Origin: Spirochaetaceae bacterium
GTDB lineage: Bacteria; Spirochaetota; Spirochaetia; Treponematales; Treponemataceae
Length of the DNA stretch: 45,592 bases
Direction of reading: 5' to 3'
NCBI GenBank assembly: GCA_017614995.1
Contig: JAGAAX010000034.1
Location: forward strand, 1 to 45,592
Both the position numbers and the translations under genes were made by a program. The notes below the pieces were generated by a model, which was not told where the DNA came from, ran no database searches, and worked only from the letters and a program-made list of their open reading frames with translations. Below, one piece after another: positions 1 through 16,974 of this stretch (position 1 is its first letter; each line of letters starts with the position of its first letter).

Positions 1-117
1 AGCTCTTGAAAAATAAAGTTACTAAAGATAAAATTTGTTCATACATAAGCGTATCCCTTTGATTTTTTTGTTGGGCAAAACAAATTTTAAAGGTTTACGC
101 TTTTTTTGTAAATTTTT

Positions 118-303
118 ACTAAAACTCGAAATTCGGGCTATATAAAGACTATCCGAAAAGCCTGCTTGATGTACAAAGTTCCGTACATCACAACTCTCGC
201 TGGCTACGTTGCAGCCATAAAAGGCATCGAGTCTATAAAGAACGGCAACGGTGTCGAGGGCGGAGTTAAGAGCTTGCAGGAGTATCATAGCTTGATTAAA
301 TAA
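118..303 (+). pseudogene. carB: 3' remnant of carB (carbamoyl-phosphate synthase large subunit)
   Basis: This frame is open from a TAA at 109-111 to the stop at 301-303. It reads as the extreme C-terminus of CarB, the allosteric MGS-like domain: CLMYKVPYITTLAG, then AAIKGIESIK, then VKSLQEYHSLIK. The family end has the same order (RxAxxYxVPYxTT, then SxQExH). Only about 60 codons remain and no frame in the first 117 bases continues the protein, so this is a decayed or recombined tail. An intact copy must lie elsewhere if the cell makes carbamoyl phosphate. A terminator follows at 328-362. Confidence 0.72.
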
Positions 304-800: not shown

Positions 801-1277
801 ATGGCATATTTAGCTTGGAAACAAAATGTTGGTGTAGAAAATCTGAATGCGGAAAAAGCTAAAGATTTATTAAAAAACTTTAGGTATAGAACTTTTATCG
901 ATGAAAAAGGAAAGTTAAGAATTGATTGCGGTGCATCTTATATAAAAATTGCTTTTGAACCTAATGGGAATACAACTTCAGTAGGTGTAACATCAACCCC
1001 TTATAAACCATGGGCTTTTATTCTGTGTTTAGTTTTTGTTTTCATTTTTGTTGTTCCTGGCTTTATTTTTGCACTTATTACAGCATCACAAAGAAAAAAA
1101 ATCTTTATAGAAGCTGTTCAAGTAATGAATCAAAATGCCTCTCAGTCTACAAAATCAGTTTCTGATTCAAGTGATGTTTCTGTAAAAATTACGAAATTAA
1201 AGGAACTAAAAGAACAAGGAATTATCAATGAGGAGGAATTTAATAAAAAGCGGGCAGAACTTATTGAAAAACTATAA
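801..1277 (+). CDS. Membrane protein with C-terminal SHOCT domain
   Basis: A 158-residue protein with an N-terminal soluble part, one hydrophobic hairpin or long membrane segment at about residues 72-97, and a C-terminal SHOCT motif (ITKLKELKEQGIINEEEFNK, then KRAELIEKL). SHOCT is a short helical module found at protein ends and thought to aid oligomerisation; the biochemical role here is unknown. It sits 23 bp before a related gene at 1301 with the same architecture, so the two are probably a duplicated pair in one operon from the promoter at 707-735. The start is supported by TTGGAGG a few bases upstream. Confidence 0.75.
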   Translation: MAYLAWKQNVGVENLNAEKAKDLLKNFRYRTFIDEKGKLRIDCGASYIKIAFEPNGNTTSVGVTSTPYKPWAFILCLVFVFIFVVPGFIFALITASQRKKIFIEAVQVMNQNASQSTKSVSDSSDVSVKITKLKELKEQGIINEEEFNKKRAELIEKL

Positions 1278-1822: not shown

Positions 1823-1865
1823 ATAAACAAGAGGCACAAAAGACAGGCGTACTCAAAATTAAATC

Positions 1866-1894
1866 TTGACTTCGCCCTATATCTGCATTATATT
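1866..1894 (+). promoter_or_regulatory. Promoter of the type III antitoxin RNA
   Basis: TTGACT at 1866-1871, a 17-bp spacer, TATATT at 1889-1894. Transcription would begin near 1901, just before the first 34-nt repeat at 1904. A strong promoter immediately before the repeats is typical of type III antitoxin genes. Confidence 0.75.
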
Positions 1895-1903
1895 TAATTT
1901 AGT

Positions 1904-2005
1904 GGTGAGTCCTACCCTAAGTGGAATCTTTAAAAGCAGTGTACCCTACTGTGAGTGGGAACTTTAAAAGCGGTGAGTCCTACCGTTAAGTGGAATCAAT
2001 AAAGC
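1904..2005 (+). ncRNA. toxI: ToxI-like antitoxin RNA: three 34-nt tandem repeats
   Basis: Three head-to-tail repeats of exactly 34 nt lie at 1904-1937, 1938-1971 and 1972-2005. Units 1 and 3 both begin GGTGAGTCCTACC and differ internally by small changes; unit 2 is more diverged. Units end in TTTAAAAGC, TTTAAAAGC and CAATAAAGC. Known ToxI/AntiQ antitoxins are short tandem RNA repeats of about 34-36 nt that the toxin cuts at A-rich junctions and that then bind and inhibit it. Promoter upstream, terminator immediately downstream, and a ToxN-family gene next all match that arrangement. The repeat structure is seen directly; RNA function is inferred from context. Confidence 0.82.
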
Positions 2006-2033
2006 CGTGCAGTTCACTGACACGGCTTTTTTT
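2001..2033 (+). terminator. Intrinsic terminator between toxI and toxN
   Basis: The stem AAAGCCGTG (2001-2009) pairs with CACGGCTTT (2021-2029), followed by a T run to 2033. The inner loop can extend the stem through CAGT/ACTG. It overlaps the end of the third repeat. In type III systems such a leaky terminator keeps antitoxin RNA in excess over toxin mRNA. Confidence 0.88.
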
Positions 2034-2043
2034 ATGGGTAATA

Positions 2044-2580
2044 ATGAAACAAGAAAGATTAAATTTATATTTTATGAATATGAAATATGTACGTGATTTG
2101 CACAAGGCTGATGATCGTGTGCAGTCGGTTTCTCCACAGATTCATAAAAGTAACCGTCCATTTATCGGAATTGTAGTTATCTGTGATAAACATAAATATT
2201 GTATTCCTCTGGATTCAGCAAAAGAAAAACACAAGACTCAGAAAAATGATGTTGATTTTACTCGTATTTTTGATGGCGAAAAACTTATCAGTGTTTTAAA
2301 TTTTAACAACATGATTCCTGTTGATGACAGATTCATTACAAAGGTAGATTTGAAAATTTCATCAAAAGATAATTCTGCACAAGCTAATTATAAGAGACTA
2401 TGCATAAAAGAAATCGAGTGGTGTAGGAAAAATCAAGAAGCAATAGTTAGAAAAGCTAATAAATTGTATTATTTGGTACAAAAGCCTAATTGTAGCGTAA
2501 TGTTGAAAAAGCGGTGTAATGATTTTAAAAAGCTGGAAAACGTCTTGAATAAAATTTTACAAATTTTTACAAAATATTGA
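2044..2580 (+). CDS. toxN: Type III toxin-antitoxin system endoribonuclease toxin, ToxN/AbiQ family
   Basis: A 178-residue protein with the ToxN/AbiQ signature: an N-terminal FMNMKYVRDLHKADDRV segment, RPFIGIVV, then YCIPLDSAKEKHKTQKN, then VLNFNNMIPV. In this family the toxin is an endoribonuclease that cuts cellular mRNA and its own antitoxin precursor, and many members abort phage infection. The start at 2044 is chosen because it leaves the family's normal N-terminus right after the terminator; the frame is open upstream to 1990, but that would run through the terminator. A ribosome binding site is weak, which fits low toxin synthesis. Confidence rests on the motifs plus the repeat-terminator-toxin layout. 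Confidence 0.88.
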   Translation: MKQERLNLYFMNMKYVRDLHKADDRVQSVSPQIHKSNRPFIGIVVICDKHKYCIPLDSAKEKHKTQKNDVDFTRIFDGEKLISVLNFNNMIPVDDRFITKVDLKISSKDNSAQANYKRLCIKEIEWCRKNQEAIVRKANKLYYLVQKPNCSVMLKKRCNDFKKLENVLNKILQIFTKY

Positions 2581-2637: not shown

Positions 2638-3063
2638 ATGGACTTAACTGATGATATGGAAGAAGAAACAGGTGCAAGAGAAGAACCTCAAGAAAATAAG
2701 AAAGAAATAGATTTTTATCCATCAATTGTTCAATTTTTAAGTGAAGATGATTTAAAAAGCCCTGCCGTATTAAAAATGGTTATTTCTCAAAATAAAAAAT
2801 ATGGACAAGAATTAGAACGCTTAAAAGAATTCGAAAATAATTTTTATAAATGTGATAAAGATTTAGCTGTAGCTAATGAAAAACTTAAAAAGAAAAAATC
2901 ATTGGAAATTTTCACCGATATAGTTTATACAATAGGGGGAGTGCTTATAGCTTTATCAACTTTAGATTTTACGAAAGATTTTTCTGTCAATCATGGACTT
3001 TTTATTGTAATTGGTATTGTTCTAATTGTAGGATCTGCAATCGCAAAATGGAGTAGAATATAA
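2638..3063 (+). CDS. Hypothetical membrane protein with acidic N-terminus and coiled coil
   Basis: A 141-residue protein not recognised as a family. The first 25 residues are rich in Glu; residues about 55-90 are charged and helical (LERLKEFENNFYKCDKDLAV), likely a coiled coil; two hydrophobic segments follow at about 98-110 and 120-137, giving a C-terminal membrane hairpin. GAAAGGAG precedes the start. Upstream, AGTATAACTATACT (an inverted repeat, AGTATA/TATACT) could be a regulatory site. The next gene starts 3 bp after the stop, so the two form an operon. Its place directly behind a ToxIN locus suggests a defence-related patch, but nothing in the sequence shows a function. Confidence 0.6.
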   Translation: MDLTDDMEEETGAREEPQENKKEIDFYPSIVQFLSEDDLKSPAVLKMVISQNKKYGQELERLKEFENNFYKCDKDLAVANEKLKKKKSLEIFTDIVYTIGGVLIALSTLDFTKDFSVNHGLFIVIGIVLIVGSAIAKWSRI

Positions 3064-16622: not shown

Positions 16623-16755
16623 CACTCTGCCAAAAACGTAATGATAACGATTTCCTTTTTTGCATCGGCTTTCAAGTTTTCGCTTGCGGAAACTTGGCGT
16701 TTTGCCAGATTAAGCTATGTTGTAGATAAATCCATAAGCAAAACGCATTTTCTCA

Positions 16756-16974
16756 AATCGTAATCATTACGATTGTTCACTTTGGTCATTTTCTCGAATC
16801 GTAATGATTACGATTGCCCACTTTGGTCATTTTCTTAAATCGTAATGATTACGATTGCTCACTTTGGTCATTTTCTCAAATCGTAATCATTACGATTGCT
16901 ACTTTGGTCATTTTCTCAAATCGTAATCATTACGATTGTTCAGTTTCATTTTGCAAAACGTAATCATTACGATT
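16756..16974. repeat. 41-bp tandem repeat with central palindrome, six copies
   Basis: The palindrome AATCGTAATCATTACGATT starts at 16756, 16797, 16838, 16879, 16919 and (slightly diverged) 16956, so the period is 41 bp, then 40 and 37. The middle base is C in some copies and G in others. Between them a near-constant linker contains CACTTTGGTCATTTTCTC. A degenerate half copy lies at about 16636. The 466-base gap 16623-17088 holds no gene I can support. The constant linkers rule out a CRISPR array. Confidence 0.92.

What the first reader, a model, noticed from the sequence alone, without database searches (positions are those of the whole stretch)
1866..2580. Complete type III toxin-antitoxin locus (ToxIN/AbiQ class)
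Promoter, three exact-length 34-nt repeats, a terminator overlapping the last repeat, then a ToxN-family gene, in that order and with nothing missing. The repeat sequence (GGTGAGTCCTACC ... TTTAAAAGC) may be a new antitoxin type. Type III systems are antiphage elements and are seldom described in spirochaetes.
Basis: partly seen in the sequence, partly recalled or inferred. Interest (0 to 1): 0.78.

Follow-up and report, generated by a model that had tools for sequence, protein, structure and literature searches.

The report
ToxIN-type toxin–RNA antitoxin locus in Treponema
This stretch of a Treponema-family genome holds an intact, ordinary member of a known class of bacterial self-poisoning anti-phage modules (an RNA-cutting toxin held in check by a small repeated RNA), with one conserved change in the toxin's active site that deserves a test.

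Summary
Window 1866-2580 carries, in order, a promoter, three 34-nt repeats (1904-2005), a strong terminator hairpin overlapping the end of repeat 3, and an intact 178-aa toxin gene (2044-2580). The protein is a ToxN: PF13958 at 1.7e-43, predicted fold matching AbiQ and ToxN at Z 19-21. Each repeat can form an H-type pseudoknot, and both stems change compensatorily between repeats and species. It is a new member of a known kind, not a new antitoxin type. The same array and toxin occur in at least ten other Treponema genomes and, more diverged, in rumen Clostridia; the unit closely resembles those of Lactococcus and Fusobacterium plasmid relatives. Open-access papers barely mention spirochaetes, but 28 of 393 sampled Spirochaetota genomes carry the family. 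Three details are less ordinary: an invariant Asp where the active-site Thr/Ser normally sits (PLDS instead of PL[TS]S), three repeats that keep separate identities by position, and sister loci with single-unit antitoxins, one in this same genome. Toxicity, neutralisation and phage defence are inferred, not shown.

The parts
1866..1894 (+). Promoter: -35 TTGACT (1866-1871), 17-nt spacer, -10 TATATT (1889-1894); likely start of transcription a few bases before unit 1
   Evidence: Consensus scan (not above chance alone); a matching hexamer pair is conserved in homologous loci with unrelated flanks
1904..1937 (+). Antitoxin unit 1; pseudoknot stems GGT 1904-1906/ACC 1914-1916 and TCC 1910-1912/GGA 1923-1925
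   Evidence: Tandem repeat, pseudoknot search, covariation over units
1938..1971 (+). Antitoxin unit 2; stems CAGT 1937-1940/ACTG 1948-1951 and CCC 1944-1946/GGG 1957-1959 (both stems changed compensatorily relative to units 1 and 3)
   Evidence: unit 2 is 93.5% identical to unit 2 of other Treponema loci but 72% and 66% identical to units 1 and 3 within a locus
1972..2005 (+). Antitoxin unit 3; stems CGGT 1971-1974/ACCG 1982-1985 and TCC 1978-1980/GGA 1992-1994; its tail runs into the terminator stem
2001..2033 (+). Intrinsic terminator between antitoxin and toxin (hairpin 2001-2029, then U-run)
   Evidence: Fold -16.6 kcal/mol, z -4.7; a hairpin is present at the same place in homologues
2044..2580 (+). 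toxN: 178-aa ToxN/AbiQ-family endoribonuclease (ATG start; the longer GTG frame from 1990 lies inside the antitoxin)
   Evidence: PF13958 1.7e-43; PADLOC AbiQ 2.9e-31; PDB ToxN chains 4ato, 2xd0, 7d8o; model pLDDT 87.5, Z 20.8 to AbiQ 4glk and ToxN-Bt 4ato
2203..2223 (+). Active-site segment IPLDSAK (residues 54-60): Asp57 at the position of ToxN-Pa Thr52; Ser53 and Lys55 kept
   Evidence: Alignment to ToxN-Pa and relatives

Best explanation
A complete, probably functional type III toxin-antitoxin module of the ToxIN/AbiQ family, acquired horizontally. One promoter transcribes the three-unit antitoxin RNA. The terminator ends most transcripts after the array, and read-through gives toxN mRNA. 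ToxN is an endoribonuclease that cuts the array inside the A-runs into about 34-nt pseudoknots. These bind head to tail between ToxN monomers (a 3:3 ring in known members) and block the active site. When transcription or the antitoxin supply fails, for example during phage infection, free ToxN cuts cellular and viral RNA and stops growth. Shown here: gene order, the repeats, compensatory pseudoknot pairing, the ToxN sequence family and predicted fold, and conservation of the toxin. Inferred from the family: RNase activity, processing, ring assembly, toxicity, neutralisation and phage defence.
For: ToxN family and fold. Gene order and terminator. H-type pseudoknot in every unit with compensatory changes: 92.9% of cells paired, covariation score 0.304 against 0.178 shuffled (0 of 500), slid structures at 0.01-0.09. 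Toxin under purifying selection: dN 0.05-0.12, dN/dS about 0.03-0.07 where dS could be estimated, most dS values being near or beyond saturation. The homologous block starts near the promoter (window 1857-1904, by locus) and ends at the toxin's 3' end (about 2540-2563) while flanks differ, so it behaves as a mobile unit. Only the window's species among 8 of its genus has this toxin at high similarity. Several relatives keep antitoxin units but have lost part of the toxin, with different break points: L027, L031, L032, L033. That is what a costly toxin would leave behind.
Against: No experiment. The Thr52 position, whose change to Val abolishes toxicity in E. coli ToxN (PMC8860590), is Asp here, so catalysis cannot be taken for granted. 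Conservation of this Asp across the clade argues against simple decay. No Rfam family matched the antitoxin.
Confidence: 0.93

Rival explanations
1. The locus is a type III module by descent, but the toxin has lost or changed its nuclease activity (Thr52 to Asp) and now only binds the RNA.
For: Asp at position 52 in all aligned Treponema orthologues; a Thr52Val change in E. coli ToxN removes toxicity (PMC8860590).
Against: Ser53, Lys55 and Arg33 are kept; strong purifying selection on the whole protein; the array, A-runs and terminator are kept in step. Butyrivibrio and Ruminococcus relatives at 64% identity share the Asp, so the change is old and retained.
Confidence: 0.08
2. The repeats are unrelated to the toxin: leader or attenuator repeats, or a small repetitive element that happens to lie upstream.
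For: Short repeats are common, and the Rfam scan found no match.
Against: Array and toxin travel together in unrelated flanks, both pseudoknot stems covary, and the layout is that of known ToxIN loci such as pECA1039.
Confidence: 0.01

Closest known systems
AbiQ/antiQ-type locus (AbiQ of Lactococcus; compared with Lactococcus plasmid pUCCL632E, 37% toxin identity)
   Same: Toxin fold (Z 20.8 to 4glk); promoter, about 3 units, terminator, toxin; unit backbone GGTGAATCTCCACCATCAAGTGAGAATCAAAAAAGC against GGTGAGTCCTACCGTTAAGTGGAATCAATAAAGC
   Different: 34-nt rather than 35-36-nt unit; units differ from each other; Asp in place of the active-site Ser
ToxIN-Bt (Bacillus thuringiensis, 4ato)
   Same: Toxin fold (Z 20.8); antitoxin unit of 34 nt repeated 2.9 times (PMC5086642)
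   Different: Low sequence identity; PLTS active site
ToxIN-Pa (Pectobacterium atrosepticum pECA1039)
   Same: Architecture and unit core GGTGA...TACC.TTAAGTG; toxin fold (Z 19.4 to 2xd0)
   Different: 36-nt nearly identical units, 5.5 copies; Lys33, Thr52 and Trp57 where this toxin has Arg, Asp and Lys
Orthologous Treponema loci, e.g. T. vincentii OMZ 806 (L019) and rumen Treponema MAGs
   Same: 80-92% identical toxin, same three-unit array, same Asp
   Different: Unrelated genomic flanks; some copies have broken toxins

Membership tests
[quoted passage not shown]
   PF13958 149 bits against a cut-off of 25; PADLOC AbiQ
[quoted passage not shown]
   AlphaFold model pLDDT 87.5; Z 19.4-20.8 to 4glk, 4ato, 7d8o and 2xd0, 12.4 to CptN, then a drop to about 6
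[quoted passage not shown]
   3 x 34 nt at 1904-2005
[quoted passage not shown]
[quoted passage not shown]
   Both stems with compensatory changes; tertiary base triples not tested
[quoted passage not shown]
   Good hexamers, not above chance by scan, but conserved in homologues
[quoted passage not shown]
   R33, S53 and K55 present; position 52 is Asp, invariant in the clade
[quoted passage not shown] RNA processed by the toxin; 3:3 ring | not testable with these tools
   Needs expression and RNA mapping
Rfam antitoxin families | Match to any existing Rfam model | tested here: not met
   No match at gathering score or plausible below it; the type III family is defined by toxin and architecture, so this does not exclude membership there

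The most novel reading that the evidence does not exclude
The Treponema/Butyrivibrio clade is a mechanistically distinct ToxN branch. Its invariant Asp at the Thr52 position takes a catalytic part, for example as a general base as an acidic residue is thought to do in Kid of the related MazF/Kid fold (from memory). Its antitoxin is an array of three non-interchangeable pseudoknots, kept distinct by position, that would build a defined hetero-ring.
Probability: 0.2. Interest if true: 0.5.

Novelty: new member of a known kind. Interest (0 to 1): 0.33.

Why it matters
It adds a well-supported ToxIN clade in spirochaetes, including a cultured species (T. vincentii OMZ 806), to a family described mainly from Firmicutes, Fusobacteria and Proteobacteria. 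It offers natural variants for open questions: whether position 52 of ToxN can be acidic, and whether the units of an array are interchangeable. The sister loci with one unit bear on how many antitoxin units are needed.

Tried and rejected
New antitoxin type: rejected, because the unit is conserved across Treponema and rumen Clostridia and close to the Lactococcus and Fusobacterium units. Rfam: no match. Phage mimics of the antitoxin or phage-borne copies: two core patterns and the protein found nothing in viral contigs; one distant ToxN on a Clostridioides phage record. Solitary copies of the units elsewhere in the own genome: none with the pattern used. Empty site in sister genomes: flanks are split over contigs, so no clean empty site could be shown. 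Blower et al. 2012, the original survey of type III loci, is not in the library, so its repeat list could not be checked. NCBIfam gave only a sub-threshold TenpIN match (20 bits, cut-off 90), so the TenpIN family is not claimed. The alignment is unsure at some positions far from the active site (e.g. Asn79), so only positions 33 and 50-57 were used.

Full report
What is there. Window 1866-2580 (+ strand) reads promoter, three 34-nt units, terminator, toxN. Tandem Repeats Finder finds the array at 1904-1997 with period 34. By eye the units are GGTGAGTCCTACCCTAAGTGGAATCTTTAAAAGC, AGTGTACCCTACTGTGAGTGGGAACTTTAAAAGC and GGTGAGTCCTACCGTTAAGTGGAATCAATAAAGC. The hairpin at 2001-2029 with its U-run is far more stable than shuffles (z -4.7), and its 5' arm starts in the tail of unit 3. 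The ORF from ATG 2044 gives 178 aa. The promoter hexamers are not above chance by scan alone, but a matching pair sits at the same place in homologous loci.

The toxin. PF13958 ToxN at 1.7e-43 (149 bits, cut-off 25), PADLOC AbiQ at 2.9e-31, and sequence matches to the three ToxN crystal structures. An AlphaFold model from a 17-sequence alignment (pLDDT 87.5) matches AbiQ 4glk and ToxN-Bt 4ato at Z 20.8 and 1.9-2.0 A, E. coli ToxN at 19.5, ToxN-Pa at 19.4 and CptN at 12.4; the next matches, MazF/CcdB, are about 6. dN is 0.05-0.12 against saturated or nearly saturated dS, so the protein is under purifying selection.

The antitoxin. A mechanical search for H-type pseudoknots finds the same fold in every unit of the window: stem 1 GGT/ACC, CAGT/ACTG and CGGT/ACCG; stem 2 TCC/GGA, CCC/GGG and TCC/GGA. 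Relatives extend this: CTC/GAG in Fusobacterium, TCTC/GAGA in Lactococcus, ATGG/CCAT with CCC/GGG in Pseudobutyrivibrio, ACGG/CCGT with CTCG/CGAG in a Clostridia MAG. On 24 distinct units 92.9% of cells pair, 17 cells have both sides changed (shuffled mean 5.4, 0 of 500 as high), and slid structures collapse to 28-51% paired. Caution: the units are related and the structure was named after seeing them, so the shuffles overstate the case; the margin over the slid structures is large.

Position matters. Between Treponema loci, unit 1 is 93% identical to unit 1 and unit 2 is 93.5% identical to unit 2, while units 1 and 2 of one locus are 72% identical and units 2 and 3 are 66% identical. The units have therefore not been homogenised. 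This is unlike ToxI-Pa, whose units are nearly identical. Whether it matters for function is unknown.

Active site. In ToxN-Pa the site is Lys33, Thr52, Ser53, Lys55 (plus Tyr29); in E. coli ToxN, Lys33Ala, Thr52Val and Lys55Ala remove toxicity, and Arg replaces Lys33 in some clusters (PMC8860590, PMC5086642). Here position 33 is Arg, 53 is Ser and 55 is Lys, but 52 is Asp: PLDSAK (residue 57 of this protein). All the aligned Treponema orthologues share it, and the Butyrivibrio and Ruminococcus relatives (64% identical) read PLDH. The other ToxN proteins aligned, including the two other toxins of this genome, have Thr or Ser at 52 followed by Ser. This is the one real departure from the family, and it is conserved, so it is more likely adapted than broken.

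Distribution and movement. Full-length relatives at 80-92% identity occur in at least ten Treponema genomes, mostly MAGs from ruminants, and in T. vincentii OMZ 806 among them, plus four genomes labelled only 'bacterium'; others at 45-64% occur in rumen and gut Clostridia. Homology starts around the promoter (window 1857-1904, by locus) and ends at about 2540-2563 in the Treponema pairs, with unrelated flanks apart from a short element far upstream in two loci. Of 8 genomes of the window's genus only this one has the toxin at high similarity. Over the phylum 28 of 393 genomes have PF13958. Open-access papers that join ToxN with Treponema or spirochaetes are nearly absent; the one of them that was opened mentions Treponema only in another connection.

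Broken copies. L033 and L005 share downstream flank, and L033 lacks the middle of the toxin; L031 and L017 likewise, with other break points; L032 and L027 are further cases. In these the antitoxin units remain. The pattern fits a toxin that is costly once the module has settled, but random decay is not excluded.

Other type III loci in the same genome. Two more toxN genes lie on contigs C54 (three units of another sequence type) and C29 (one unit only), at 31-32% identity to this one. The one-unit form recurs in L037, L040, L041, L044 and L053 (L040 and L053 with stops in the toxin) with the same order of promoter, one pseudoknot, terminator, toxin. Published work found that 2.5 repeats were needed for ToxI-Pa and at least 1.8 for antiQ (PMC5086642), although a single cloned CptI unit was used in overexpression (PMC4627078). 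I have not found natural one-unit loci described, but the library is partial.

Verdict. It is a new member of a known kind with one conserved active-site change; the antitoxin is not a new type. Function is inferred.

Noticed in passing
L003 (own genome, contig C29, toxin at 1501-1971) and L037, L040, L041, L044, L053: ToxN loci with a single pseudoknot unit instead of a tandem array, between a promoter and the terminator; stem 1 AAGG/CCTT, stem 2 TCGC/GCGA in most. Natural one-unit type III antitoxins would bear on the rule that about two or more units are needed.
   Followed up: partly
L033 2839-3090; L032 815-1047; L031 2840-3265; L027 2911-3346: Antitoxin units kept while the toxin has lost internal parts, with different break points: naturally disarmed modules.
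   Followed up: partly
window 1-144: A sequence about 140 bases long found at 99% identity in eight other contigs of the same genome, in some at the very contig end: a multi-copy element.
   Followed up: no
window 145-303: About 160 bases shared at 77-81% with other places in this and related genomes, including upstream of the ToxIN locus in L009 and L010.
   Followed up: no
window 801-1277 and 1301-1822: Two tandem related genes with C-terminal SHOCT domains just upstream of the module (repeat D1).
   Followed up: no
window 2638-3063: Small protein with predicted hydrophobic C-terminal half directly downstream of toxN, with a weak match to a SLATT-type model (E 0.0044).
   Followed up: no
window 16746-16974: Tandem array of a 41-base unit, 5.7 copies, each with an inner palindrome AATCGTAATNATTACGATT.
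   Followed up: no
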